From positions 682,001 to 746,000 of the forward strand of contig NZ_BKCG01000001.1 of NCBI RefSeq assembly GCF_008974325.1: a stretch of DNA of 64,000 nucleotides, in the 5' to 3' direction. The notes below the pieces were generated by a model, which was given only the letters and a program-made list of their open reading frames with translations, was not told the origin of the DNA and did not search any database. The DNA comes from Patiriisocius marinus. GTDB taxonomy: Bacteria > Bacteroidota > Bacteroidia > Flavobacteriales > Flavobacteriaceae. The stretch's first letter is position 1. Each line of letters begins with the position of its first letter. Both the position numbers and the translations under genes were made by a program. Below, one piece after another: positions 940-16,791 of this stretch.

Positions 940-3900
940 ATGAAACAAAAACTCACTCTCCTATTAATGCTACTTTTTTGTGCTATTTTTTATAGCCAAG
1001 CACAAATAGATAATAGTGCGCAACAATATAACACGTTACTCAATGAATATATTGATAATAATTTGAAAGATTATGATTTAGAAAAATTGACCGATAGAGA
1101 AATATCAGGTATAAAATCATCCTTAAGAAATACATATAAATCACAAAATAATATTAGTATAAAAAACAACACTAGTAAAATTGTTAATGGCTTTAATACT
1201 TTTCCTTTAGAAAATTCACTAATTGCCGCTCCTATTTTAGTTGGTGAATTATTTGAAAACAGCTGCGGTATTACGTTTGATTACGATACGTATTCGTCTA
1301 GTGTAACAAATGGTCTAACACAACAAAGTCTAGGTAGTTTCACAAATTCCAATAATCAATATATACCTTTTAACTCTGGTATGATTTTATCAACAGGTTT
1401 TATTGAAAATGCAGATGGATCAAACTTAAATCCAATTGGAAACGAATTCTCTGATGGAGGACCTGCATCTGGTGCTTGGGACAATTATTTCGATCCATTT
1501 ATTACTGAATTTGGAGAATTTAACTCTGGTTATCATAATGGTACTACAATTAAGTTTGATATAACTCCTGAGACTAATCATATTTCATTTGATTATATAT
1601 TTTTATCAGAAGAATATAACCAATATTATGAATGTAACATTGCAGATGTATTCGTATTTATTTTAGAAGATAATGAGGACTCAAATGTAGAACCAGTTAA
1701 TATGGCTGTATTACCAGGTACTAATACTCCTGTGCAAGTAACAACAGTCCACCCAAATATTTTTCAAGTAAATAATGCCAATAGTCCTGGCAACTGTAAT
1801 GCTGTTAATGCGCAATTTTTTTCTCATTATAACTGGAATCCTCCTTTTAATCCAGGTCCAAATCCATTTAATACAGTTTCTCCTGGTTTATCTCCTACAA
1901 TTTTTGATGGTCAGACCATAGAATTAACAGCTGAAGCTATGGTAATACCTAATAGAAGTTATACTATAACTCTTGCAATTGCAGATTATCTTGATCAGAG
2001 TTATGATGCAGCAGTTTTAATTGAAAATGGTTCTTTTAATAGTGATATTGATTTAAATGATGACGTAACAATTTGTAATGGTCAAAATACTCAATTAGGT
2101 ATTTCAGCAATAAGTGGAGCTAGTTATCAATGGGCTTTGCAAAACAATGCAGGAAATTTCAATAATATAAGTGGTGCAACAAATAATACATATTCAACAA
2201 GTGTAGCTGGTACTTATCAATTAACAGTTACCATAAATGGTTGCACTTATACAGATACCGTAGTAGTAACAACAGCAAGTACTCCTGTAGCACAAACTCC
2301 AGATGATATTACCGTTTGTGACGCAGCTCCTAATGATGGTTTTGCACTATTTGATTTGACATCAGTTGAAACAGCTATTTTAAACGGTCAAGCCGGAACA
2401 ATTACCTATTATGTAAGTCAAGCAGATGCTGATAACGGTGTAAATGAAATTTCAAATCCAGGAAACTATGAAAATAGTGATCAAGACCAGCAAACCATTT
2501 ATGTAAGGTTAAATAATGCCGGCTGTTATGATACTGTAAGTTTTGATATAATTGTAGAGATTTGTTGCGAAGAAGCGGCATGTCCAGATATTGAGATTAA
2601 TAAAAATGTAGTAAGTCCTACTATTGGAATAGGAAACAATGTATATGAACCAGGAGATACGATTATTTATTCCATTATGGTAACCAATAATGAGCCAGAA
2701 ACAACCTGTCCTTTTACATTTGATGTAAGCGATCATATAGATACAACAATCTTAGATGAGAACACTTTCAACTCTAATAGTTTTAATGTATTGTATAATG
2801 TTAATACAGATATTGTGTCAATAAACAATATTTCACTGGTCTCTGGAGCATCTCAAACATATTATTTCAATTTTGAAATTTTAGATGACACGCTTGCCGA
2901 AAGTATTGAAAATTGTGCTAGTGTAGCTTTAAATTGTATCGACACTGGAAATAATATGTATGAAAGTTGCGTAACAACACAAATTGAACAGCCAGTATCT
3001 ATTTGGCCAAGAACGTATGGAGGGGATAGTTTTGTTAACACGGGGAGATATTCTGAGGATGTTGCCACTGATGAAGAAGGAAATGTATATACATTAGGTA
3101 ATATTGCAGTTGGGGATAGATCTTACGAAGACAGTAATTTTGTTTCCGGAGAACAAGGTTACATTATGAAACATGATTATTTTGGCAATCTTGTTTGGAT
3201 AACACCTATTAGTAGCCAATTTCATCATCTTAAAGATGGTGGCCTAATTAAATACTATAACAATAAGTTACATGTGATTACCAGTAAAGGATTCTATTTG
3301 CAATACAATGATGATGGCACATTTATAAATGGATCTGCCTATGAAACACGTTTGGAAAAACCTGCAATATCATTGAATACAAATAATGGGAATATTGTTA
3401 TTGCGGGAACGTATTATTCAAATTTTTATAATTCCGATTTCTCTGTGAACGCTAATAGCGATAGGCCGACGGGCGTAGTCATAAAATTTGGTGCTACTGG
3501 CATTGGCGCCAATACGTTACACGATTATATTACACACCAAACATTCACACATAATGGTAATTCGGGTAAATCATCAATAAATTTTTATGACGCAGTTTAT
3601 GCAGAAGATACCGATAGGATATTCTTGACAGGCTACTCTAAGGGCAATAGAGTTTTTCCAAATGGGCAATTGGCAAACTATACGTATGGGAAATCGATTA
3701 TAGTAACCTTAAAGGATAATGGAAATTCATTAGACATGACTCATAATGCATATATTCAATACAATACTAAATATCCATATAATGAATATAGAAATAGCTC
3801 TGATAAAATCTATATTACTACTGCCACTGGTAGATTATGCGAAATCCCTTTTTCCGAATCTAATATAAGTGGTTTTGGACAAAGAACACTTATAGATAAC

Positions 3901-4533
3901 ATTTTTGAAAACGATTCTTATGTAAAAGACATGGTTATAAATCAAGAAACAGGAGACCTCTTCTCAATTGGGGTAAAGTCCGGATATTCGGAAATTTCTA
4001 AGGTTTCACCGCAAGGAAGAGTATGGAATAAAAAAGTTGAACACTTACAACCTAAAGCTATAGCATTAGGTCCACTTAACCATTATTTTATAACTGGTAA
4101 TTATAGTGATAACACAATATTAAACCCAGGGAATCCATCAAACCCATCACCGATTTATGAGTATGGATCACCCGCAAATTATGACAATATATTTACCGCT
4201 CGTTTTAAAGATTATGGTAATATTGGTTATTTTAGAAATCAAGAGGAAGATAAAACTGATTTTGTAAATGATGTGCCTAATAGTTTCTTGATATTTCCTA
4301 ATCCATCTGCAGGAAACATCTCAGTTAAAAAAGCCAAGATTAATGAAACCTACAATACGGTAACTATTAGTATCAAAGATTTCTCTGGAAAGGTTGTTTT
4401 CAGGAAGGCAAACGTAGATGCTAGTCTAGTCAACACTTATAGATTAGAGTACTTAAAAACAGGGCTTTATTTTATGGAAATTATCAATAATGGAAAAAGT
4501 ATTGAGGTCCATAAGATTATGATTAATAAATAG
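940..4533 (+). CDS. Large secreted choice-of-anchor L / T9SS type A sorting protein
   Basis: 1197 residues. A signal peptide (about 1-21, ending SQAQ) is followed by a choice-of-anchor L domain (about 105-365, with GMILSTGF and FDYIFLSEEYNQYYECNIAD signatures). Next come an Ig-like module (about 370-445), a Cys-containing module (about 450-545), a DUF11-like adhesion module (about 550-685, EINKNVVSPT...YEPGDTI), a repeat region resembling SBBP/propeller blades (about 690-1090, YGGDSF and DEEGNVYTLG), and a type A T9SS sorting domain (last ~85 residues, FPNPSAGNI). The family pattern is a cell-surface or released adhesin; no catalytic residues are recognised. It stands alone, bounded by terminators at 778 and 4689. 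Confidence 0.88.
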   Translation: MKQKLTLLLMLLFCAIFYSQAQIDNSAQQYNTLLNEYIDNNLKDYDLEKLTDREISGIKSSLRNTYKSQNNISIKNNTSKIVNGFNTFPLENSLIAAPILVGELFENSCGITFDYDTYSSSVTNGLTQQSLGSFTNSNNQYIPFNSGMILSTGFIENADGSNLNPIGNEFSDGGPASGAWDNYFDPFITEFGEFNSGYHNGTTIKFDITPETNHISFDYIFLSEEYNQYYECNIADVFVFILEDNEDSNVEPVNMAVLPGTNTPVQVTTVHPNIFQVNNANSPGNCNAVNAQFFSHYNWNPPFNPGPNPFNTVSPGLSPTIFDGQTIELTAEAMVIPNRSYTITLAIADYLDQSYDAAVLIENGSFNSDIDLNDDVTICNGQNTQLGISAISGASYQWALQNNAGNFNNISGATNNTYSTSVAGTYQLTVTINGCTYTDTVVVTTASTPVAQTPDDITVCDAAPNDGFALFDLTSVETAILNGQAGTITYYVSQADADNGVNEISNPGNYENSDQDQQTIYVRLNNAGCYDTVSFDIIVEICCEEAACPDIEINKNVVSPTIGIGNNVYEPGDTIIYSIMVTNNEPETTCPFTFDVSDHIDTTILDENTFNSNSFNVLYNVNTDIVSINNISLVSGASQTYYFNFEILDDTLAESIENCASVALNCIDTGNNMYESCVTTQIEQPVSIWPRTYGGDSFVNTGRYSEDVATDEEGNVYTLGNIAVGDRSYEDSNFVSGEQGYIMKHDYFGNLVWITPISSQFHHLKDGGLIKYYNNKLHVITSKGFYLQYNDDGTFINGSAYETRLEKPAISLNTNNGNIVIAGTYYSNFYNSDFSVNANSDRPTGVVIKFGATGIGANTLHDYITHQTFTHNGNSGKSSINFYDAVYAEDTDRIFLTGYSKGNRVFPNGQLANYTYGKSIIVTLKDNGNSLDMTHNAYIQYNTKYPYNEYRNSSDKIYITTATGRLCEIPFSESNISGFGQRTLIDNIFENDSYVKDMVINQETGDLFSIGVKSGYSEISKVSPQGRVWNKKVEHLQPKAIALGPLNHYFITGNYSDNTILNPGNPSNPSPIYEYGSPANYDNIFTARFKDYGNIGYFRNQEEDKTDFVNDVPNSFLIFPNPSAGNISVKKAKINETYNTVTISIKDFSGKVVFRKANVDASLVNTYRLEYLKTGLYFMEIINNGKSIEVHKIMINK

Positions 4534-5916: not shown

Positions 5917-5950
5917 AACGAATAATAAACCATCAACTACGAATACTAAA
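5917..5950 (+). promoter_or_regulatory. Tandem-repeat activator site, copy A (LytTR-type)
   Basis: Two 13-mers, AACGAATAATAAA (5917-5929) and TACGAATACTAAA (5938-5950), repeat in the same orientation with a 21-bp period and an 8-bp spacer CCATCAAC. The 34-bp block matches copy B at 8315-8348 in 31 of 34 positions. It lies 29 bp before a perfect -7 box. Direct repeats two helical turns apart are how LytTR-domain regulators such as AgrA bind DNA, and a LytTR regulator gene is at 13,258. That the regulator binds here is inference. Confidence 0.7.
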
Positions 5951-5979
5951 GTAGCATAAATTTAACGCCACTACCCTCA

Positions 5980-5987
5980 TACTTTTG
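5980..5987 (+). promoter_or_regulatory. -7 promoter box for the VIT/vWA gene
   Basis: TACTTTTG, an exact fit to TAnnTTTG, about 37 bp before the start codon at 6025. No TTG element is found at the -33 position; that region reads AAATTTAA, as also in copy B, consistent with a promoter needing an activator. Confidence 0.65.
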
Positions 5988-6024
5988 GTTCAAGAAATAA
6001 ACAATAACTCTTAAACCAAATAGT

Positions 6025-8223
6025 ATGAAATCACTTTTTTTCACTTTCGCGCTTCTAATATCCGTGCTCTCTTTCGGACAGCAAGTTTCAGAAACAACAC
6101 AAAAAACTGCTAGTCCGTATTTAGAAATTTCAGCAGAAAACGCAAATGTTCCACTGCTAGAAACTAAAACCGATGTTCACATTACAGGAACCATCGCCCA
6201 TGTTAAACTAACGCAAGTGTACCATAACGAAGGGACAACAGCCATCGAAGCAAAATACGTCTTCCCAATGTCGCTTGAAGCTGCAGTGCACGATATGAAA
6301 ATGAAAATTGGAGAACGCGTTGTAAATGCACAAATATTTGAAAAACAAAAAGCAGAGCAAGTATATCAAAAAGCAGTAAAAGAAGGAAAACGTGCTGCTA
6401 AATTAGACCAGTCTCGTCCTAACGTTTTCCAGATGAAATTAGGAAATGTAATGCCTGGCGATCAAATTACCATCGATATGTATTATACCGAAATGCTCAC
6501 ACCTACAAATGGCTCATATCAATTTGTTGCCCCTGGAGTTGTAGGCCCTCGGTTTACAGGCGAATCTTCTAAAACGGAAACCACTTTCGCACAACCTTAT
6601 ACAGGAAAAGGAATTGCAGATACTTTTAAATATGACGTTCAAGTACGCATAAATGCCGGAATAACAATTCAGAATGTTTCAAGTAAAAGTCACAAAGTAA
6701 ATGTGACGTATCCTGCTAAAAATTCTGCTGAAATTTTCTTATCAAAAAGTAATGTCAACCCAGCAAATCGCGATTTTATTCTTGATTATAACTTGCGAGG
6801 TGATGCTATTTCTAGCGGACTTTTACTGTACGAACACGATAACGAAAAGTTTTTCGCTTATATGATGGAGCCGCCTAAAAAAATAACTCACGACCAGATC
6901 ACACCTAGAGAATACTTATTTATCGTCGATGTATCTGGCTCCATGAACGGCTACCCTCTTGAGGTAAGCAAAGATTTAATGCGTAATTTATTATGTAACC
7001 TTAATTATGAAGACACCTTTAACGTGCAACTTTTCGCATCAAGCTCAACAGTATATAGCGAAATTCCTGTACAAGCAACTGAACAAAACATTGAAAATGC
7101 CATTAGTTTTTTAAGCAATGGTCAAGGTGGCGGCGGAACTGAATTATTAAGTGCATTAAACGTAGCGTATAAATTGCCTAGAGCTAACGAAGGTAGTGCA
7201 CGATCTATGGTAGTTATTACTGATGGGTATGTAAACGTAGAAAAAGAAGCTTTCAAAAAAATTGAACAAAATCTAGATCAAGCAAATGTATTCACCTTTG
7301 GGATTGGAAGTTCTGTAAATAGATTTTTAATCAAAGGGATGGCAAAAGTTTCAAACTCTCAATCCTTTATTGCAACCACAAAAGAAGAAGCGTTCAATGT
7401 AGCGGCAGATTTCAAGGACTATATCGCAACACCATTAATGACGCAAGTTTCGTTTAAAACAAAAGGATTTGAAACCTACGATGTGGAACCTAAATCAATC
7501 CCAGATGTATTTGCAGCACGCCCTGTGGTTATCTTCGGAAAGTATAAAGGCGAAGCAAAAGGTGACATCATCATAACAGGATATCAAGGCCGAAAAAAAG
7601 TAAAACAAAAATTTGATGTTTCCGAAGGAACACTTAGTGCAGATAATAGTGCGCTTCGATATTTATGGGCTCGTAAAAAAATAGCCCGATTAGATGATTA
7701 TAATACCAACTTTAGAGAGGATGTAAAAGATGAAGTAACGTACCTAGGTTTAGCGTATAATCTTGCCACAAAATATACGTCATTTGTAGCCGTTGATGAG
7801 AAAATAGTAAACCCAGACGGTACAATGAAAACCGTAAAACAACCTTTACCAATGCCAGCAAATGTGAACAATAGTGCCGTAGGTGCTGCAGCAGAGGTAA
7901 AAGGAAAATCAATCGCTAAAAAAACGTATACACTTACATTTAATGCAGGTGAACTACCTAAAGCCGAAGCTAGAAAATTGAATATGTGGTTTAAAGCAAA
8001 CTACGGTAAATTAGCTGAAAAGTATATGAGCCAGTTTATGGAACTCCGCGTAAAATTTGGTGAAAATGGAGCAGTACTCAATGTCCAAACGTTTGATGGA
8101 ACAAACTGGATTCACAATGCTGAAATTTTAAAAGAGTTTCAAAAGTTAGTAGTAAAAAAAGCCCCTACTTCTAACCAATTCACTGCCTATGCAGTTGATG
8201 AAAGCATAGGGTGTAGTTGTTAA
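6025..8223 (+). CDS. Exported VIT and von Willebrand factor A domain protein
   Basis: 732 residues with a signal peptide (1-19, ending SFGQ). A VIT domain (vault/inter-alpha-trypsin type, about 28-160, with AKYVFPMSLEAAVHDM and the KRAAKLDQSRPNVFQ region) is followed by a vWA domain (about 295-465). The metal-ion adhesion site is intact: DVSGS at 302-306, Thr372, and Asp400 in VVITDGY. The last residues are SIGCSC, an unusual Cys-X-Cys terminus. Such proteins are Sec-exported in Gram-negatives and are thought to bind protein ligands through divalent metal. The gene is alone in its transcript (terminator 8246-8283) and sits under the tandem-repeat element at 5917-5950. Role unknown. Confidence 0.9.
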   Translation: MKSLFFTFALLISVLSFGQQVSETTQKTASPYLEISAENANVPLLETKTDVHITGTIAHVKLTQVYHNEGTTAIEAKYVFPMSLEAAVHDMKMKIGERVVNAQIFEKQKAEQVYQKAVKEGKRAAKLDQSRPNVFQMKLGNVMPGDQITIDMYYTEMLTPTNGSYQFVAPGVVGPRFTGESSKTETTFAQPYTGKGIADTFKYDVQVRINAGITIQNVSSKSHKVNVTYPAKNSAEIFLSKSNVNPANRDFILDYNLRGDAISSGLLLYEHDNEKFFAYMMEPPKKITHDQITPREYLFIVDVSGSMNGYPLEVSKDLMRNLLCNLNYEDTFNVQLFASSSTVYSEIPVQATEQNIENAISFLSNGQGGGGTELLSALNVAYKLPRANEGSARSMVVITDGYVNVEKEAFKKIEQNLDQANVFTFGIGSSVNRFLIKGMAKVSNSQSFIATTKEEAFNVAADFKDYIATPLMTQVSFKTKGFETYDVEPKSIPDVFAARPVVIFGKYKGEAKGDIIITGYQGRKKVKQKFDVSEGTLSADNSALRYLWARKKIARLDDYNTNFREDVKDEVTYLGLAYNLATKYTSFVAVDEKIVNPDGTMKTVKQPLPMPANVNNSAVGAAAEVKGKSIAKKTYTLTFNAGELPKAEARKLNMWFKANYGKLAEKYMSQFMELRVKFGENGAVLNVQTFDGTNWIHNAEILKEFQKLVVKKAPTSNQFTAYAVDESIGCSC

Positions 8224-8245
8224 ATTCCTGAAGAGTTATTATTGT

Positions 8246-8283
8246 AAACCTTCTAGGTCTTTATGATCTGGAAGGTTTTTTTA
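8246..8283 (+). terminator. Rho-independent terminator
   Basis: AAACCTTC / GAAGGTTT stem with a partly paired inner segment, followed by seven T residues, after the VIT/vWA gene. Confidence 0.8.
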
Positions 8284-8314
8284 TTTGTTTGAAATGAAGA
8301 AACCCTTATTCAAT

Positions 8315-8348
8315 AACGAATACTAAACCATCTACAACGAATACTAAA
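8315..8348 (+). promoter_or_regulatory. Tandem-repeat activator site, copy B (LytTR-type)
   Basis: Two identical 13-mers AACGAATACTAAA at 8315-8327 and 8336-8348, 21-bp period, spacer CCATCTAC. It shares 31 of 34 positions with copy A and has exactly the same 29-bp distance to the -7 box at 8378. Two independent promoters keeping sequence, period and distance argues for a real protein-binding site. Confidence 0.72.
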
Positions 8349-8377
8349 GCGATCAAAATTTAAACGAAGTGCTCCCG

Positions 8378-8385
8378 TAACTTTG
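8378..8385 (+). promoter_or_regulatory. -7 promoter box for the 8416-10070 gene pair
   Basis: TAACTTTG, an exact match to TAnnTTTG, 30 bp before the start codon at 8416. The -33 region again lacks TTG and contains AAATTTAA. Confidence 0.65.
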
Positions 8386-8415: not shown

Positions 8416-8976
8416 ATGAAAAATATACTTTTAATTATCGCAGTAATCTTCACAGCTCAATTAAGCTTTTCTCAAGATTTTGAACCTAGCAATAAATACA
8501 TTCTTGCTCTTGAGAACGCTCTTAGTGAAAACGAAGATGTTAGTATAAAAGCACTACTAAAAACTACAAATGATGCAGAAGAAAATCTTTCTTTCTTTCC
8601 ATTAGTAAGTGGAGAAAACATCAATGAAGTAGTAATAAGTACGCTTGAAAACCCTGTTTTAAATGGCGTACAACGTGTTATTAAAGTAGACGTAAAATAT
8701 ATTGAATACTGTACCTACACCATTTCTAATTACATTTTAGAAACTACGAAAGGAGATTTCATCTCATTACCAATGCTCACAAATGAGGATTGCAATGACG
8801 AACCTTCTCAGCTTGTTTACTTATTCCCATCACAAGCATTTGGAAAAGAAAATCAAATAATCACTTCGCAAATTATGGTTGAAGCTAATACTGTAAAAGC
8901 AGCAACACAAGAGGATAGTTTTATATGGAATGACGACAGCTATGGCGCGTCTGGCCAACTTTATGAAGAACTATAA
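8416..8976 (+). CDS. Small secreted protein of unknown function
   Basis: 186 residues with a clear signal peptide (MKNILLIIAVIFTAQLSFSQ). The mature part is acidic and has three cysteines (YCTY near 95 and EDCND near 120). The C-terminal tail (EEDSFIWNDDSYGASGQ-like, residues ~168-183) is rich in Asp, Ser and Tyr. No family is recognised. The next gene begins 35 bp later in the same direction with no terminator between, so the two are probably co-transcribed from the tandem-repeat promoter. Its partner in the operon is a lipoprotein. Confidence 0.8.
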   Translation: MKNILLIIAVIFTAQLSFSQDFEPSNKYILALENALSENEDVSIKALLKTTNDAEENLSFFPLVSGENINEVVISTLENPVLNGVQRVIKVDVKYIEYCTYTISNYILETTKGDFISLPMLTNEDCNDEPSQLVYLFPSQAFGKENQIITSQIMVEANTVKAATQEDSFIWNDDSYGASGQLYEEL

Positions 8977-9011: not shown

Positions 9012-10070
9012 ATGAAATTTTTCACCGTACTCCTTATTGTTTTCACCACATTTTTAGCCTGTGAAAAAGCTTCTTTATACGAGGTTCCACACGGTGAAGA
9101 AGTAGCATATAACTCAAATGATACTATGCTAGAATCCAATGTAAAAACAAATAGTATTGCCTTTATCGCAGGTTTCGATGAAGATGAAAATACATATTAT
9201 ACAAATGCAACTAGATATTTTAAAAACCAACAAATTCCTGTTGTAGAAGAGCTTTATTCATTAGATGAAATTATCGCCTATTTAAATATGTCAACCAAAA
9301 CTTACAAGAATATTCACATTATTAGCCACAGTAATCCATGGGCCGGAATCTCTTTAAAAGTAAGTAAAGACGGAAACCGGATTACTGTGCACAATTTAGA
9401 TACTGCGCTAAATTCAAAAAGCATTCCTATAGTAACACATGGAGTTGACGAACACACGAATATCATTTTTCACTCTTGTGGATTGGGCGAAAATACCGAA
9501 CTCGCTCAACTGTTAAAGCAAGCATTTACAAACACCGTTTCACCTCAACTAATTGCATCGCCATATTTTAATGTTTTTGGCGGAAACTATGTGCCGCATT
9601 ACCTTGCGAAACCTTATTATGTTTCATACCCAACAGGGCATTCTCCCGGACCTCTTGCGTTATCTGAAGAAATGAAAACAATATACCCTAAGGTTACTAT
9701 TGATTGGAATACAGCCTTAACAACTAGAAAAGAAACTACAGCTACCGAAATATATTCTTATCGATTTAATGTTCCTGTTGAATGGGAATTTACATTTGAA
9801 GATGTTTCTGAAATACCATCTCTTGAAACCCGTGACGACATAATGGACTTCGTTAGTGAGCAAGATGAGATGGCTATGGCCTTATACGAATTAGATATTC
9901 CGCTTGAAAAATACCGATGGATCATTAAAATTTCCGAAGAAAAAAAGACCTTACTTATTAAAGGCAAAACTACTATTCTATGTGTTTTAGACCCCATTGA
10001 AAATAGTAATGATGCAGGTAATTATGCCGTTCCAGAAATTACAAACGAAAATCTATATACGGTATTCTAA
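9012..10070 (+). CDS. Lipoprotein with caspase-like (clan CD) His/Cys arrangement
   Basis: 352 residues. Signal peptide with lipobox ending at Cys17 (FLAC). The segment 48-175 has alternating hydrophobic strands: SIAFIAGFD, then KNIHIISHSNPWAG with His106, then NIIFHSCGLGEN with Cys156. A His at the end of one strand and a Cys at the end of the next, each followed by small residues, is the active-site layout of clan CD proteins (caspases, gingipains, and the DUF4347-type domains HxxSHG...LYGC). The 50-residue separation fits. The C-terminal 140 residues are not recognised. No family was assigned by search, so peptidase activity is only a hypothesis. Confidence 0.75.
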   Translation: MKFFTVLLIVFTTFLACEKASLYEVPHGEEVAYNSNDTMLESNVKTNSIAFIAGFDEDENTYYTNATRYFKNQQIPVVEELYSLDEIIAYLNMSTKTYKNIHIISHSNPWAGISLKVSKDGNRITVHNLDTALNSKSIPIVTHGVDEHTNIIFHSCGLGENTELAQLLKQAFTNTVSPQLIASPYFNVFGGNYVPHYLAKPYYVSYPTGHSPGPLALSEEMKTIYPKVTIDWNTALTTRKETTATEIYSYRFNVPVEWEFTFEDVSEIPSLETRDDIMDFVSEQDEMAMALYELDIPLEKYRWIIKISEEKKTLLIKGKTTILCVLDPIENSNDAGNYAVPEITNENLYTVF

Positions 10071-10131: not shown

Positions 10132-13100
10132 GTGATAAAGAACTTAAATCCATTTTACAGCAAAACTCTACAAGCTTTAAAGCTGCATTTTGAACGCACA
10201 ATTTTAGCCCTAGTTGTACTGTTTTTTTGCAATAATGCAACTTCACAAACGAACGAACTAAAAGCCTATACCGTTGAGGATGGTTTGCCGCAATCTCAAG
10301 TATATGCAATTGCACAGGATACGATAGGTTATTTGTGGCTTGGAACACAAGGGGGTGGATTAGCTCGTTTTGACGGAGAACACTTTGAAGTTTTTAACGA
10401 AAAAAGTGGGTTGGGATCTAGTTATGTAAATACCCTCGTCTCAATCAATAACGACGTTCTAATAGGAACTAGAAAAGGAGTTTCTATTTTTAATGGCCGA
10501 AATTTTAAAAACTTCAACACTCCTGCTGTTCGTCAAATAAGAGTGATAAACAAGGAAATCTACTTTGCAACGATTCAAGGAATTTTCACATTAACAAACA
10601 CTGGTAAGGTTCAACAATGCGTACTTTCTGAAGCGATCAACAACGCGAGTGTTAATGATATTGTTTTTAAAAACAATAACTACTGGATTGCTACTAAAGA
10701 GGGATTCTATAAAACGCAATCTCTTCTAAAAAGAAAACCTGTATCTCAAATTGCCAATGGTAATTTCACCTCAATTACAACTACAATTGATCAAATTTTT
10801 GCTGCTACTTTTAATGATGGTATTAGGCAATACAACGTTGACGGAACTCCTCTAAACACTTCTAATATCCCAAGAAGAATTAACAGCATTAAAATACTGG
10901 ACAATAAATTATGGATTGCTACAGATACTAAAGGATTATTTGTGTTAAACCCAAATACCTTTGAAATTGAAGCAACTATTAGCGATAGACAAGGACTTTC
11001 GGTTAGACATGTACGTTCCGTTTTTAAAGATACGAGTGGACAGCTTTGGATTGCTACAAGTGGTGGCGGTTTAATTAAATACTTCCCAAATCAATTTACG
11101 CATTATGACAAGGACACAGGGCTAATTGGAAATAGAATCTATGCCGTTGAAAGTACGAAGGACCGTGTTTGGTTTTCGGTTGAAGAACAAGGATTGAGTT
11201 ATATAGATTCTTTAGGGATTAAAAGAGCTCCTCCAGTTTCAGACTTTGATAACGTAAAAATTAAAACTCTTGCTAGTGATGCTTCGGGAAACATTTGGGC
11301 TGGTTCTGAAGGAAAAGGGTTGCTTTACAAACACATTAGAAAATACGATAGTATTGTAGTTTCAGGATCAAGTATCGCAACCATCAAACTGGACACAATC
11401 AAAATTGAAAAAGTAACAGATTACGTTCTCAATGAGAAAGTAGGTTTTCCTTCCAACTGGATTAGATCAATATATGTTGATGGTAATGACGTTTGGGCAG
11501 CAACCTATGGTGACGGAATTGTAAAGTTCAATTATGATACAAAAAGAGAACGTATAAATATTATCAAGCATTTTGGGAAAGAGCAAGGTATTGATGATAT
11601 GCTTATTCGCGATTTAAAACCAGATGAACAAGGTAGAATTTGGTATGGAACTCAAGCAGGAGCAATAGGGTTTATTGACAACAATAACGTTACTCATTTA
11701 GGAAATATGTTAGGTGTAAACACTTCTATAAACACCCTAGTTTTTAAAAATAACACGTTATACATTGGCACTGCAGATAGTGGTATTTTCTACTCAACTG
11801 ATAATGATTATAAAAACTTCAAACCATTAACTGGCGATAAAACACCTACCTCTAAAAACAGCTATTTATTGATTTTTGATTCTGAAAACAATCTATGGAC
11901 TGGTAGTGAACGAGGTATTGACAAACTTGTATTAAATAATGAAAATGAAATTATCGATCTTTTTCACTATGGAAGAACCGATGGCTTTTTAGGAATTGAA
12001 ACCTGTTTAAATGCTGTTGCAGAAGATGAGAATAACACATTATGGTTTGGAGCGATTTATGGATTAACTGCATTCGAAAACAATGTAGAAAATAAAGATC
12101 TTCAAACAAAACCTACCATTCACTTTGAGTCTATTGATATTGGTTATAAGTCATTAGACTCTTTATTAAAACTAAATACCAAAAACAAAGTCTTAAATCT
12201 TGAACCAAATGAAAATCAACTTTCATTTACTTATAGAACTGTTGACCTTAATCACCCTAAAGGAGTTCAATATCGCTATAAAATTGACAATACTAAATGG
12301 AGTCCTTGGAGCACAACAGCACAACAAAATTTTGCTGGTTTAGCCTATGGAAAGCACACCTTTAGTGCTCAATCACGCAATTATAGGTGGATTGAAAGCG
12401 AGCCTATTAAATTTAAATTTAACATAGGGACTCCCTTATTTCAGCAAGCTTGGTTTCAATGGTTACTTATTGCTTGTTCACTCTTAATATTGTTCACTAT
12501 TGTGTTTGCCTATGTTAGAAATCTGAAAAAGAAAAACAGAACAAAGCAAGCACAATTAGAACTAGAAAATCACTTACTTGGTTTAGAGCAAAAAGCATTG
12601 CGATTACAAATGAATCCTCATTTTATCTTCAATGTGCTAAACGGAATTAAAGCTATGGGAGTGACAGACACTAAAAAAATGAACACGACCATTAATAGCT
12701 TTGCAACACTTTTAAGGGGTATTTTAAACAACTCCCGTAAAGAACAAATTACACTTGCTGAAGAAATAAATGTACTTAAAAATTATATAGAAGTTGAGCA
12801 GTTAATGGCGCAAAAGCCTTTTAAATATTCATTACAAATAGAATCTGATCTTGATCTAGAAGAAGTATTAATTCCGCCAATGCTTGTGCAGCCATTTGTT
12901 GAAAATGCAATTAAACACGGGATTTCTTCTTCAAATCAAATTAACGGAAACCTAGAAATTCTGTTTAAAACTACACAAACCTATTTAACTTGTAGCATTA
13001 CAGATAATGGAAAAGGAATTTTTGAAACCCAGAAAAATAAAGCTACAACAAGCCATCAATCTGTTGCACTTGGAGTAACAAAAGAACGAATAGAATCTCT

Positions 13101-13200
13101 TAGCGGAAAAGGAGCTTTGAGTATTTCAGAAATAAAAGAAAACAATATAATTAAGGGTACAAGAATTCATTTTAAAATACCTTTAGAAACAGAGTTTTAA
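10132..13200 (+). CDS. Two-component sensor: beta-propeller / Y_Y_Y / LytS-type histidine kinase
   Basis: 1022 residues. Start is GTG; an in-frame stop at 10108-10110 and absence of any nearby ATG leave no better choice. After an N-terminal hydrophobic segment (about 22-38) come Reg_prop propeller blades (about 40-650, repeated motifs such as DTIGYLWLGTQGGGLARF), a Y_Y_Y domain (about 690-765), one membrane helix (774-799) and a LytS-class His_kinase domain. Phospho-acceptor His830 lies in QMNPHFIFN, N-box Asn925 in FVENAIKHG, and D958-NGKG in the ATP lid. So periplasmic sensing is coupled to cytoplasmic phosphorylation of a LytTR regulator, encoded 57 bp downstream. Confidence 0.92.
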   Translation: MIKNLNPFYSKTLQALKLHFERTILALVVLFFCNNATSQTNELKAYTVEDGLPQSQVYAIAQDTIGYLWLGTQGGGLARFDGEHFEVFNEKSGLGSSYVNTLVSINNDVLIGTRKGVSIFNGRNFKNFNTPAVRQIRVINKEIYFATIQGIFTLTNTGKVQQCVLSEAINNASVNDIVFKNNNYWIATKEGFYKTQSLLKRKPVSQIANGNFTSITTTIDQIFAATFNDGIRQYNVDGTPLNTSNIPRRINSIKILDNKLWIATDTKGLFVLNPNTFEIEATISDRQGLSVRHVRSVFKDTSGQLWIATSGGGLIKYFPNQFTHYDKDTGLIGNRIYAVESTKDRVWFSVEEQGLSYIDSLGIKRAPPVSDFDNVKIKTLASDASGNIWAGSEGKGLLYKHIRKYDSIVVSGSSIATIKLDTIKIEKVTDYVLNEKVGFPSNWIRSIYVDGNDVWAATYGDGIVKFNYDTKRERINIIKHFGKEQGIDDMLIRDLKPDEQGRIWYGTQAGAIGFIDNNNVTHLGNMLGVNTSINTLVFKNNTLYIGTADSGIFYSTDNDYKNFKPLTGDKTPTSKNSYLLIFDSENNLWTGSERGIDKLVLNNENEIIDLFHYGRTDGFLGIETCLNAVAEDENNTLWFGAIYGLTAFENNVENKDLQTKPTIHFESIDIGYKSLDSLLKLNTKNKVLNLEPNENQLSFTYRTVDLNHPKGVQYRYKIDNTKWSPWSTTAQQNFAGLAYGKHTFSAQSRNYRWIESEPIKFKFNIGTPLFQQAWFQWLLIACSLLILFTIVFAYVRNLKKKNRTKQAQLELENHLLGLEQKALRLQMNPHFIFNVLNGIKAMGVTDTKKMNTTINSFATLLRGILNNSRKEQITLAEEINVLKNYIEVEQLMAQKPFKYSLQIESDLDLEEVLIPPMLVQPFVENAIKHGISSSNQINGNLEILFKTTQTYLTCSITDNGKGIFETQKNKATTSHQSVALGVTKERIESLSGKGALSISEIKENNIIKGTRIHFKIPLETEF

Positions 13201-13257: not shown

Positions 13258-14007
13258 ATGTTATCAGCCATTATTATTGAGGATATGCCAGATGCTTTAA
13301 TGCTTCTTGAACAAGAATTAAAACAGAATCATAAAGATATTGATGTTGTTGCAACTGCAAAAAGTGTTGTAGAAGCAGCGAAGGTACTGCGTAAACAAAC
13401 TCCAGACATTTTATTTTTAGATATCATGCTTGGTGACGGAACTGGATTTGATGTGCTTGAAATATTTCCAGATTTACCAAGCAAGATCATATTTGTAACA
13501 GCTAGTGATGAGTATGCGATTAGAGCCTTTAAGTTTGCCGCTATTGATTATGTTTTAAAACCATATGCACCAGAAGATTTAGCAAAAGCGATAGGTAGAG
13601 CTAAAGAACAATTACACCCAGGAAGTGAACGCTTAAGTATATTAAAGGAAACTATTGCTACACCAGATGCACGTCCAGATAAAATATCATTACACACTTT
13701 AGATAAAATTATTATTGTTGGACTTGATGAAATTATACGTTGCGAAGCAGATAGCAATAACACCATGTTTCACCTTACTAACGGGAAAAAAGTATTTGTA
13801 ACTAAAACCCTAAAGTACTTTAGCGATATGCTAAGCGGGTATAATTTTCTTCGCGTACACCAAAGTCATTTAGTAAACTTACAGTGCATAAGTGCCTTTA
13901 TTAAAACGGATGGAGGTTATTTGCTGCTAAAAGACAAACAAACGGTTCCTGTTTCAGTTAGAAAAAAGAGTGAAGTAATTGAGATGCTTGATAGGATGCA
14001 CCGTTAA
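13258..14007 (+). CDS. LytTR-family response regulator
   Basis: 249 residues. Receiver domain 1-120 with acidic pocket (IIEDM), phospho-acceptor Asp55 (LFLDIMLGDG) and conserved Lys101 (YVLKPY). LytTR DNA-binding domain about 142-245 (DEIIRCEADSNNTMFHLTNG, then FLRVHQSHLVNL). It forms a cognate pair with the LytS-type kinase just upstream. LytTR proteins bind direct repeats about 21 bp apart, and two such elements precede the genes at 6025 and 8416; these are the best candidate targets in the window. Regulation of those genes by this protein is inference from motif geometry and proximity. Confidence 0.93.
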   Translation: MLSAIIIEDMPDALMLLEQELKQNHKDIDVVATAKSVVEAAKVLRKQTPDILFLDIMLGDGTGFDVLEIFPDLPSKIIFVTASDEYAIRAFKFAAIDYVLKPYAPEDLAKAIGRAKEQLHPGSERLSILKETIATPDARPDKISLHTLDKIIIVGLDEIIRCEADSNNTMFHLTNGKKVFVTKTLKYFSDMLSGYNFLRVHQSHLVNLQCISAFIKTDGGYLLLKDKQTVPVSVRKKSEVIEMLDRMHR

Positions 14008-14382: not shown

Positions 14383-16791
14383 TTAAAATTTGTAGCTAGC
14401 AGCCAAGATTAAATTTCTTCCCGGAGCTGCTATACCTGAAGAATACGTTTGGTAACGTTGATCTGTAATATTTTCTAAAGTTGCATTTAAATGTAGTGCT
14501 TCTGTAAGTTGATACTGTGCACCAAAGTTAAGTGTGTACCATCGTGGAGAATAAGGATTTCCATCTTCGTCTTTGGCATATAAATAGTCATTACTTACTT
14601 GACTAGGTGCTAAGTCTTGGAAATCAAATTGACCATTGAAAATTGCAAAAGCATCAAACTTGAACTTCCCTTTACCATAAATTAAGTGACCATTACCAAA
14701 TTGTGGCGCAGCATGACGAATAGGTGTTTGCTCACCATTTTCTTCTTCCGTAAATCCATCTGTAATATTATATTGAGCGGTAAGTTGTAATGCTTTTGAA
14801 AAGTTCACTTCAAGACCTGCTTCAAAACCATAAACTTCAGATCTAGCCGCATTTTGTATTGCTTGCACATTACTAAGTTCACCTTGGAATTCAATTTCGG
14901 TTTCGCCATCTAGTTCAAAATCTCTTCTTACTAAAGCATCTTTCAATACTGTATAGAAAAGTGCTAAATCCACCTTAACGATATTATCAAAATTTAAAGT
15001 AGTCCCAACCTCTCCGTTATATGCATATTCTGGTTCTAAATCTGGATTAGGAACAACAACGCTTCCTGGCTCACTGTCAAAAACTTTACCTACATCATCA
15101 ATATTTGGTGCTCTAAAAGCTGTTCCGAAATTTAGCCTCCATCCTAGTAAATCATTTGGATTATACGCTATTCCTGCTGAACCTGTTAAGGCGCCTGCAT
15201 CAATATTTGCATCGGTAAAAGGTAGATCATACAAAGTTTCATCAAAAGTTGCATCTACTAAAATGTGGTTGTACCGTGCTCCAGCTTGAAATGATAACTT
15301 ATCTGTAAACTTGAAATTTGTGCTTACGTATGCTGCTATCGATTGCCAAGTTGCGCCATCTGGATACCGAGAAACATCTCTTGTAGAAACTCCATTTGTA
15401 ATATCGGTTTGTTCTCCTGTTGAATTAACTTTATTAAATACATACTCAACTCCATAGTTGAATTTTGAGCTTCTCCAGTCTTTTTCAAAATCCCAGGCTG
15501 CTGTGTAAGCATTTACAATCTCTTCGGTTTGAAATAAAATAGTATCTCCAAAATCTCTATCATTTCTACTTTCTTTAAATCGTTGATACGAAATTGTTGC
15601 TACACTCTCGTCATAAAAACTGTTATTATATGCCGTATTTCTAGCTTGTAAATTTCCAGAAATCCACTCCTGTGGTCCGTAATACCATTCAGAAGATCTA
15701 AGTTCACCATTTTTACGTCTAATTAATCTGTCGTATCGTGAGTAATCACTAGTAGTTGTATAAAATAATCCAAGGTCAAAATTCCATTTTTCACTTGGCA
15801 TGTATCTTATTTTCTGCATCGTATTTATTTGATGATAACCTGTAGTTACCTGAACTCTTGGGTCATCATTTTGAACAACAGTATCAACACCATTTATCGT
15901 CTCCACATATTCGTTTCTTAAATAATCGTCTGGGCCATTACTACCCATTCTCAAATCGTCAAAATCACTAAACGTTACACTTGTTAAAAAAGCCCATTCC
16001 TTAGCACCTATATTAAAATCGAAATGTCCTGTTTTTTCATTATTTGCAGTTGCATAACGTGCTGTTGCATTTCCAGAAACCGAAAGACCCTCTTCAAAAG
16101 AAAACTTAGGCTTCTTTGTATAGAAATTCATCACACCACCTATAGCGTCACTACCATATACAACGGAACCTGGCCCTAAAATCACTTCTGTATTTTCAAC
16201 TGCAAAAGGATCTATTGATATAACATTTTGAACATTTCCGGCTCTAAAAATAGCGTTATTAAATCGTACACCATCTACAGCGATAAGCAATCTATTTGTT
16301 GAAAAACCACGAATTAAAGGACTTCCACCTCCAAGCTGACTTTTTTGAACATATACTGATCCACTTGATTGAAGTAAATCTGCAGCAGTTTGAGGATTAC
16401 TAAAAAGTACATCTTCACTTGTTACTGAAACTATTTGTTGTGGAATATCTTTCTTTTTTTGACCAAATTTAGAAACTGAAAGTACAATTTCATCTAACCC
16501 ATTGGCATCAATAGTCATAAACACTTTATTATCTGCCTTGCTAATTTCAGCTTTTGTTAGTTTTAAAACTTGGTGTGCAATATGCTGAAATGTTAAGATT
16601 TCATTAGTAGCAAATTCTGAAATATCAACAAATCCATCGAAATCAGTAACACCGCTTTTAGATTTATCATTATTAAAAATGGCCACTCCAGGAATTGCAG
16701 ATTGATGTTCCTGATCGAAAACTTGAATTTTTTGGGCGTAAAGTTGGGCTGAGATAGTAATTAAGAGTAGGCAGAGAAATAGTTTTTTCAT
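14383..16791 (-). CDS. TonB-dependent outer-membrane receptor, heme-receptor-like
   Basis: 802 residues. Signal peptide (1-19, ending YAQ), a carboxypeptidase-regulatory-like N-terminal domain (about 20-95), plug domain (about 110-225; PLIRGFSTNRLLIAVDGVR, then GSDAIGGVMNF) and 22-strand type barrel ending in the canonical aromatic terminus (ASYKF). Barrel motifs FRAP (559-562) and NPDL (582-585) correspond to the FRAP/NPNL boxes of bacterial heme receptors, but the His found between those boxes in classical heme receptors is absent here. Substrate is therefore uncertain. Its ATG overlaps the recO stop (TAATG), so it is translated from the porZ-recO transcript. Confidence 0.88.
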   Translation of the reverse strand: MKKLFLCLLLITISAQLYAQKIQVFDQEHQSAIPGVAIFNNDKSKSGVTDFDGFVDISEFATNEILTFQHIAHQVLKLTKAEISKADNKVFMTIDANGLDEIVLSVSKFGQKKKDIPQQIVSVTSEDVLFSNPQTAADLLQSSGSVYVQKSQLGGGSPLIRGFSTNRLLIAVDGVRFNNAIFRAGNVQNVISIDPFAVENTEVILGPGSVVYGSDAIGGVMNFYTKKPKFSFEEGLSVSGNATARYATANNEKTGHFDFNIGAKEWAFLTSVTFSDFDDLRMGSNGPDDYLRNEYVETINGVDTVVQNDDPRVQVTTGYHQINTMQKIRYMPSEKWNFDLGLFYTTTSDYSRYDRLIRRKNGELRSSEWYYGPQEWISGNLQARNTAYNNSFYDESVATISYQRFKESRNDRDFGDTILFQTEEIVNAYTAAWDFEKDWRSSKFNYGVEYVFNKVNSTGEQTDITNGVSTRDVSRYPDGATWQSIAAYVSTNFKFTDKLSFQAGARYNHILVDATFDETLYDLPFTDANIDAGALTGSAGIAYNPNDLLGWRLNFGTAFRAPNIDDVGKVFDSEPGSVVVPNPDLEPEYAYNGEVGTTLNFDNIVKVDLALFYTVLKDALVRRDFELDGETEIEFQGELSNVQAIQNAARSEVYGFEAGLEVNFSKALQLTAQYNITDGFTEEENGEQTPIRHAAPQFGNGHLIYGKGKFKFDAFAIFNGQFDFQDLAPSQVSNDYLYAKDEDGNPYSPRWYTLNFGAQYQLTEALHLNATLENITDQRYQTYSSGIAAPGRNLILAASYKF

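What the first reader, a model, noticed from the sequence alone, without database searches (positions are those of the whole stretch)
5917..8385. Duplicate 34-bp promoter element with LytTR geometry upstream of two operons
At 5917-5950 and 8315-8348 the sequence has two 13-mers each (ACGAATACTAAA core), repeated in direct orientation with a 21-bp period. The two blocks agree in 31 of 34 positions, and each ends exactly 29 bp before a perfect TAnnTTTG box (5980, 8378). The -33 region of both lacks TTG and reads AAATTTAA. Conserved sequence, period and distance to the promoter indicate an activator site. Direct repeats two turns apart are how LytTR regulators bind, and a LytTR regulator gene is 5 kb away.
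Basis: partly seen in the sequence, partly recalled or inferred. Interest (0 to 1): 0.75.

Follow-up and report, generated by a model that had tools for sequence, protein, structure and literature searches.

The report
Self-activating sensor switch for envelope proteins
Two near-identical DNA elements in a marine flavobacterium look like the landing sites of a sensor-regulator pair that switches on its own operon and a gene for an exported protein, and related bacteria seem to use the same sites for a protease-trap gene.

Summary
In detail: 34-bp blocks at 5917-5950 and 8315-8348, 31 of 34 identical, two half-sites with a 21-bp period, each exactly 29 bp before TAnnTTTG. It is more than chance and is conserved. 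The LytTR reading is well supported by comparison; nothing was tested at the bench.

The LytTR regulator (13258-14007) is not just "5 kb away": it is the last gene of the run that element 2 heads (186-aa protein, 352-aa lipoprotein, histidine kinase, regulator), so autoregulation is predicted. The other target encodes a VIT-vWA protein.

Among 80 loci chosen by the kinase, 16 of 16 of this regulator's clade carry the element, against 0 of 51 others with a regulator hit (six of these hold under 500 bp upstream). Among 149 family genomes, mismatch-free matches occur in 13 of 16 with the regulator, 0 of 133 without. In that draw the element, sometimes as three half-sites, also precedes alpha-2-macroglobulin genes in 5 of 11 regulator-bearing genomes, and in 0 of 65 examined without.

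Verdict: a new, well-supported operator and small regulon of a known kind (LytTR two-component system). Signal and role are inferred.

The parts
5918..5929 (+). distal half-site ACGAATAATAAA of element 1
5939..5950 (+). proximal half-site ACGAATACTAAA of element 1
5980..5987 (+). TACTTTTG, predicted -7 box of promoter 1, 29 bp after the element
   Evidence: 29-bp spacing conserved
6025..8223 (+). target gene 1: VIT + von Willebrand A protein, 732 aa (signal-peptide-like start, by eye)
   Evidence: Pfam VIT 1.4e-33, VWA; NCBIfam TIGR03788 below its cut-off
8246..8278 (+). terminator-like hairpin after target gene 1
   Evidence: pattern only; 7 found in the scan, 5.4 expected
8316..8327 (+). distal half-site ACGAATACTAAA of element 2
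8337..8348 (+). proximal half-site ACGAATACTAAA of element 2
8378..8385 (+). TAACTTTG, predicted -7 box of promoter 2, 29 bp after the element
8416..8976 (+). first gene of the run, 186-aa protein without Pfam family (signal-peptide-like start, by eye)
   Evidence: alignment
9012..10070 (+). 352-aa protein with a lipobox-like start (by eye), weak DUF4347 match below cut-off and weak caspase-like fold; His106 and Cys156 present here
10132..13200 (+). sensor histidine kinase: Reg_prop propeller, His_kinase, HATPase_c
13258..14007 (+). LytTR response regulator, predicted binder of both elements
   Evidence: Pfam Response_reg 2.7e-19, LytTR 9.6e-18; clade

Best explanation
Both elements are operators of the two-component system encoded in the second run of genes. 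Shown by sequence: two 12-bp half-sites (strongest letters ACGAATWCTA) in direct repeat, 21 bp (two helical turns) apart, the inner one ending 29 bp before the -7 box. Inferred: an unknown envelope signal is read by the propeller domain of the histidine kinase, which phosphorylates Asp55 of the regulator; LytTR domains bind both half-sites next to the -33 region and recruit RNA polymerase to a promoter with a weak -33. This switches on the kinase-regulator run itself (positive feedback) and the VIT-vWA gene. In relatives the same regulator is predicted also to drive alpha-2-macroglobulin (often followed by PBP1C), which suggests a response to protease or cell-wall attack.
For: (1) The same two promoters keep the element in four relatives, three of the same genus and one of another; counting the window's two, the box is at 29 bp in 9 of 10 promoters. 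(2) Set chosen by the kinase, not by the element: 16 of 16 flavobacterial loci of the clade have it; 0 of the 51 other loci with a regulator hit, six of which hold under 500 bp upstream of the kinase match. (3) All 44 rows of one regulator clade (99/98; bootstrap not fully settled) come from loci whose kinase run carries the element. (4) 149 family genomes: element at the kinase run in 16 of 16 with the regulator; mismatch-free matches 13 of 16 against 0 of 133 (Fisher p 3e-16; kinship not corrected). (5) Unlinked targets: in G099 the VIT gene and the kinase run lie on different contigs, both with the element; alpha-2-macroglobulin promoters carry it with a box at 29 bp in 12 of 22 regulator-bearing genomes (chosen because they hold the element somewhere) and in 0 of 65 without; in the even draw alone 5 of 11 against 0 of 65. 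(6) Of 64 distinct promoters, 47 have TAnnTTTG and 12 TAnnTT exactly at 29. (7) Geometry as in published LytTR sites. (8) Of the six window proteins scanned the regulator is the only one with a DNA-binding family. (9) 0 of 12 other LytTR places of this genome, one of them a fragment, have such a repeat with a box upstream.
Against: No binding or expression data. 10 of 22 regulator-bearing genomes with alpha-2-macroglobulin lack the element there. G361 has a mismatch-free element before a lipoprotein gene but no regulator of the clade (best 33-37% identity). Two other mismatch-free matches, both in G225, lie before an astacin-type peptidase or no clear gene, without a box at 29. Two distant LytTR regulators (L061, L085) outside the clade lie near an element. 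The half-site fits the published LRS repeats (ACC..CTTA type) only in part. Loci were picked because they have the element. Related genomes are not independent.
Confidence: 0.87

Rival explanations
1. The site is bound by another, unlinked transcription factor that is co-inherited with the system; the LytTR protein does not bind here.
For: No binding data. Three of 31 mismatch-free matches lie away from any target of the system, and G361 has one without the regulator.
Against: Presence of the element follows one LytTR clade; repeat length, 21-bp period and promoter position are those published for LytTR; the other factor would have to share this phylogeny.
Confidence: 0.08
2. The LytTR protein binds but represses: the inner half-site ends close to the -33 region, as in CoxC, whose three repeats overlap -35.
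For: CoxC is a LytTR-type repressor with three direct repeats over -35 (PMC11347149, passages).
Against: Here the repeats end 29 bp before the -7 box, upstream of the -33 region, as in activators. No TTTG at -33 and a rigid spacing would suit an activator (general knowledge, not tested).
Confidence: 0.1
3. The two blocks are a recent duplication without regulatory function.
For: 31 of 34 positions agree inside one genome.
Against: Both copies are kept in other genera while surrounding bases diverge; information is concentrated in half-sites and -7 box; the element recurs before unrelated, unlinked genes.
Confidence: 0.01

Closest known systems
LytTR-family response regulators and their operators (AgrA, ComE recalled; NCBIfam's BtsR model matched below its cut-off)
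   Same: Response_reg + LytTR domains; pair of about 9-bp direct repeats with about 12-bp spacer just upstream of the promoter
   Different: Half-site ACGAATWCTA is a sequence of its own; promoter is the Bacteroidota type (TAnnTTTG); sensor has a Reg_prop propeller
LytTR Regulatory Systems (LRS) of Streptococcus mutans, HdrRM/BrsRM (PMC6193735, passages)
   Same: Direct repeats mostly 12 bp apart before their own promoter; positive feedback shown there
   Different: LRS pair a LytTR protein with a membrane inhibitor; here a histidine kinase and a receiver domain
RcoM/CoxC LytTR operators with three direct repeats (PMC11347149, passages)
   Same: Three evenly spaced repeats, as before 7 of the 12 element-bearing alpha-2-macroglobulin genes (each half-site at least 7 of 10)
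   Different: Different half-site and sensory domains; CoxC represses
E. coli yfhM-pbp1C, alpha-2-macroglobulin with PBP1C (PMC4498604, passages)
   Same: PBP1C-like gene within 1.5 kb of alpha-2-macroglobulin in 11 of 23 loci; thioester CxEQ in 3 of 3 proteins examined
   Different: Here predicted to be under a LytTR system together with a VIT-vWA gene; alpha-2-macroglobulin was not found in the window's own genome

Membership tests
LytTR two-component response regulator | Receiver domain plus C-terminal LytTR DNA-binding domain | tested here: met
   Response_reg 2.7e-19, LytTR 9.6e-18, both over cut-off
LytTR two-component response regulator | Partner histidine kinase of the His_kinase (PF06580) type next to it | tested here: met
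   His_kinase 2.9e-20 in 10132-13200, directly upstream
LytTR operator | Pair of about 9-bp direct repeats spaced 10-13 bp | tested here: met
   cores of 9-10 bp, period 21, so 11-12 bp between; definition
LytTR operator | Located just upstream of the promoter -35 (-33) region | tested here: met
   repeats end 29 bp before the predicted -7 box; start sites not mapped
LytTR operator | Sequence agrees with the broad LytTR half-site consensus | tested here: inconclusive
   By eye the leading AC resembles the repeats listed; published sites vary and no scoring was run
LytTR operator | Bound by the LytTR protein | not testable with these tools
   Needs EMSA or footprinting
LytTR operator | Element and regulator occur together across genomes | tested here: met
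   exception G361; G225 has two further matches away from known targets
LRS (LytTR regulator + membrane inhibitor) | Membrane inhibitor protein instead of a kinase | tested here: not met
   partner is a histidine kinase
Caspase-like (clan CD) peptidase, for the 352-aa protein | Caspase fold with His/Cys dyad | tested here: inconclusive

The most novel reading that the evidence does not exclude
A flavobacterial counterpart of an inducible anti-protease response: one self-amplifying LytTR sensor switch co-ordinates bacterial versions of two protein families known from blood plasma, alpha-2-macroglobulin (protease trap, with PBP1C for wall repair) and a VIT-vWA protein (domains of inter-alpha-trypsin inhibitor heavy chains), plus a caspase-like lipoprotein. 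In part of the sister regulator clade the half-site is kept but turned round relative to the promoter, so operator orientation may have switched during evolution.
Probability: 0.3. Interest if true: 0.68.

Novelty: new member of a known kind. Interest (0 to 1): 0.5.

Why it matters
It gives a precise, testable operator (sequence, period, spacing) for a LytTR two-component system in Bacteroidota. I saw no such operator in print, within narrow searches of open-licence papers: LytTR with flavobacteria and regulon gave no paper; LytTR with direct repeats and Bacteroidetes gave two, judged from the listing only; the motif letters gave 34 papers, the 15 listed unrelated by title. It also predicts how some flavobacteria control alpha-2-macroglobulin, a bacterial protease trap, and ties it to an uncharacterised VIT-vWA protein and lipoprotein, which offers a handle on their function.

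Tried and rejected
General LytTR architecture: a de novo search for 12-bp direct repeats (period 18-25) 22-37 bp before TAnnTTTG upstream of the 12 other LytTR places of this genome (one a fragment) found none at 10 of 12 identity, so the element looks specific to this regulator.

Sister clade (group B): TTATTATTCG or a close form, reverse of the window half-site, lies with ATTCG exactly 31 bp before the box in 5 loci (L109-L113) and 4 more (L343-L345, L347), 9 in all. L115 has the sequence but no exact box, L346 gave no hit, L342 and L350 were cut off by contig ends; L117 and L118 of the same clade show none and L121 has no upstream DNA. No relative of 51-64% identity (L348, L349, L351-L361) has ATTCG at 31. 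A search of 395 genomes of the order found 26 places, each with one mismatch, fewer than the control pattern (about 40 by my count). The second half-site of group B is not clear, so this stays a lead.

Saprospiraceae L114 (regulator 56% identity, VIT gene present) has one half-site ACGAATAATA before VIT but no repeat. L101, without a regulator hit, has a weak repeat (18 of 20) before VIT without a box at 29.

The fold of the 352-aa protein was not settled: model pLDDT 73, pTM 0.47, ambiguous matches. Paper searches for alpha-2-macroglobulin with inter-alpha-trypsin inhibitor (12 of 101 listed) and with flavobacteria (12 of 689 listed) showed no relevant paper among the rows.

Dropped before counts: 15 of 79 rows (12 loci plus one L069 place) before the 64-promoter count, and only rows scoring at least 18 of 20 entered it. 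G361 and G272 were set aside; one search then showed that G272 has the regulator and G361 has not; G272's alpha-2-macroglobulin site scores 16 of 20 without a box at 29 and is counted as lacking. 5 of 70 regulator-less genomes with alpha-2-macroglobulin were not fetched. That the 149 genomes are all among the 397 is inferred from their handle numbers, as the answers do not list every genome.

Full report
What is there. At 5917-5950 and 8315-8348 the window holds two blocks that agree in 31 of 34 positions. Each has two half-sites, ACGAATAMTAAA and ACGAATACTAAA, 21 bp apart in direct orientation, and ends 29 bp before a perfect TAnnTTTG box. No match at up to 3 mismatches arose in 100 shuffles of the window, and the whole 3.56-Mb genome has only these two (the backwards control pattern matched once).

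Setting. Element 1 precedes a 732-aa protein with VIT and von Willebrand A domains (6025-8223). Element 2 precedes four genes on the same strand with gaps of 35, 61 and 57 bp: a 186-aa protein, a 352-aa lipoprotein-like protein, a histidine kinase with a Reg_prop propeller, and the LytTR response regulator. The scan shows a terminator-like hairpin after the VIT gene and the next one on this strand after the regulator (such hairpins are near the chance level). The regulator is therefore predicted to control its own transcription. The genome is a flavobacterium; G006, of the same genus, has a contig as long as one of an uncultured Ulvibacter, so the genus is probably Ulvibacter or close to it (inference).

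Conservation. In G005, G006, G008 (same genus) and G046 (another genus) both genes keep the element, period 21; counting the window's two, TAnnTTTG stands at 29 bp in 9 of 10 promoters. A search of 397 family genomes with up to 2 mismatches found matches in 67; I count 31 places with none. After fetching neighbourhoods, 26 of these 31 stand before the VIT gene (12) or the kinase-regulator run (14), 2 before a 190-aa lipoprotein beside a second VIT copy whose C-terminal part resembles that of VIT (29% over 62 aa), and 3 elsewhere. These loci were chosen by the element.

Test without that bias. The kinase alignment was used to draw 80 loci from public genomes, the best 80 of a longer list. All 16 flavobacterial loci of the regulator clade carry the element upstream; of the other 51 loci with a regulator hit none does, but six of them hold under 500 bp upstream of the kinase match; of 13 without a regulator hit one has a weak match without a box at 29. 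Some of the 16 are the same genomes as in the first set (L096, L098, L103 share contig lengths with it). A regulator tree puts 44 rows, all from loci whose kinase run carries the element, in one group (99/98); two distant regulators, L061 and L085, from loci fetched for an element, fall outside. In an even draw of 149 family genomes, 16 have the regulator; all 16 have the element at the kinase-regulator run. Mismatch-free matches occur in 13 of the 16 and in 0 of 133 without it; the 2-mismatch pattern hits 13 of the 133 by my reading, as does its backwards control. Relatives are not independent, so the Fisher values overstate the case.

New targets in relatives. Elements in G346, G243, G400 and G227 stand before genes of large lipoprotein-like proteins; the two given to Pfam are alpha-2-macroglobulins, and the other two match one of them as homologues. 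The thioester motif CxEQ is present in 3 of 3 examined. Across 22 regulator-bearing genomes with this gene, 12 have the element with a TAnnTT box at 29 bp, 7 of the 12 with three half-sites of at least 7 of 10 each; 0 of 65 regulator-less genomes do. The 22 were chosen because they hold the element somewhere, some of them at this very gene. In the even draw alone the numbers are 5 of 11 against 0 of 65 (Fisher p 2.5e-5). A PBP1C-like gene lies within 1.5 kb in 11 of 23 loci; in G272 the element stands before such a gene itself. Alpha-2-macroglobulin was not found in 4 of 4 genomes of the window's genus searched. In G099 the VIT gene and the kinase run are on different contigs and both have the element, which speaks against mere linkage.

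Shape of the site. Over 64 distinct promoters (VIT, kinase run, and two of the 190-aa lipoprotein) the information is concentrated in ACGAATWCTA at both half-sites and in the -7 box; the spacer is less conserved. The box is TAnnTTTG at 29 in 47, TAnnTT in 12, GATATTTG in 4, other in 1. The rigid distance suggests that the bound protein touches polymerase from a fixed face (inference).

Mechanism. Published LytTR sites are pairs of 9-bp direct repeats 10-13 bp apart (PMC11347149, passages); in S. mutans they sit just upstream of -35 and cause positive feedback (PMC6193735, passages). The element fits. Steps inferred: signal, phosphorylation of Asp55, binding, activation. The lack of TTTG at -33 agrees with activator dependence but is not proof, since that motif was not identified in F. 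johnsoniae (PMC7366714, passages). E. coli alpha-2-macroglobulin with PBP1C is proposed to defend and repair the wall against proteases (PMC4498604, passages); by extension the switch may answer protease or wall damage. This last step is a guess.

Against. Ten of 22 regulator-bearing genomes lack the element at alpha-2-macroglobulin; G361 has a mismatch-free element without the clade regulator; two G225 matches have no box at 29. No experiment was seen. Paper searches showed no description of this site in their listings (only open-licence papers are held).

Verdict. It is a new member of a known kind, with an unexpected regulon in relatives.

Noticed in passing
L109-L113, L343-L345, L347, before the kinase gene: In part of the sister regulator clade the half-site occurs in reverse orientation (TTATTATTCG or close) with ATTCG exactly 31 bp before TAnnTTTG in 9 loci: the operator seems turned round relative to the promoter.
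   Followed up: partly
window 9012-10070 and alignment A3: The 352-aa protein has a His/Cys pair placed as in caspase-like enzymes; Polaribacter and Tenacibaculum copies, at loci without a detected VIT gene, lack it.
   Followed up: partly
L074 and L076: Second VIT + lipoprotein locus without the kinase nearby, followed by a 190-aa lipoprotein-like protein that shares the C-terminal part of VIT; both units have the element with GATATTTG at 29 bp.
   Followed up: partly
L061 (G361): Mismatch-free element before a 188-aa lipoprotein-like gene in a genome without the clade regulator; a distant LytTR pair (35% identity) lies about 1-2.6 kb away.
   Followed up: no
L059 (G225): Mismatch-free element 163 bp before an astacin-type peptidase gene, without a -7 box at 29 bp.
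   Followed up: no
window 940-4533: 1197-aa protein with a type IX secretion sorting domain (Por_Secre_tail).
   Followed up: no
window 14383-16791 (-): TonB-dependent receptor resembling heme/hemoglobin receptors, below the curated cut-off; it lies next to the regulator in G006 and G008 as well.
   Followed up: no
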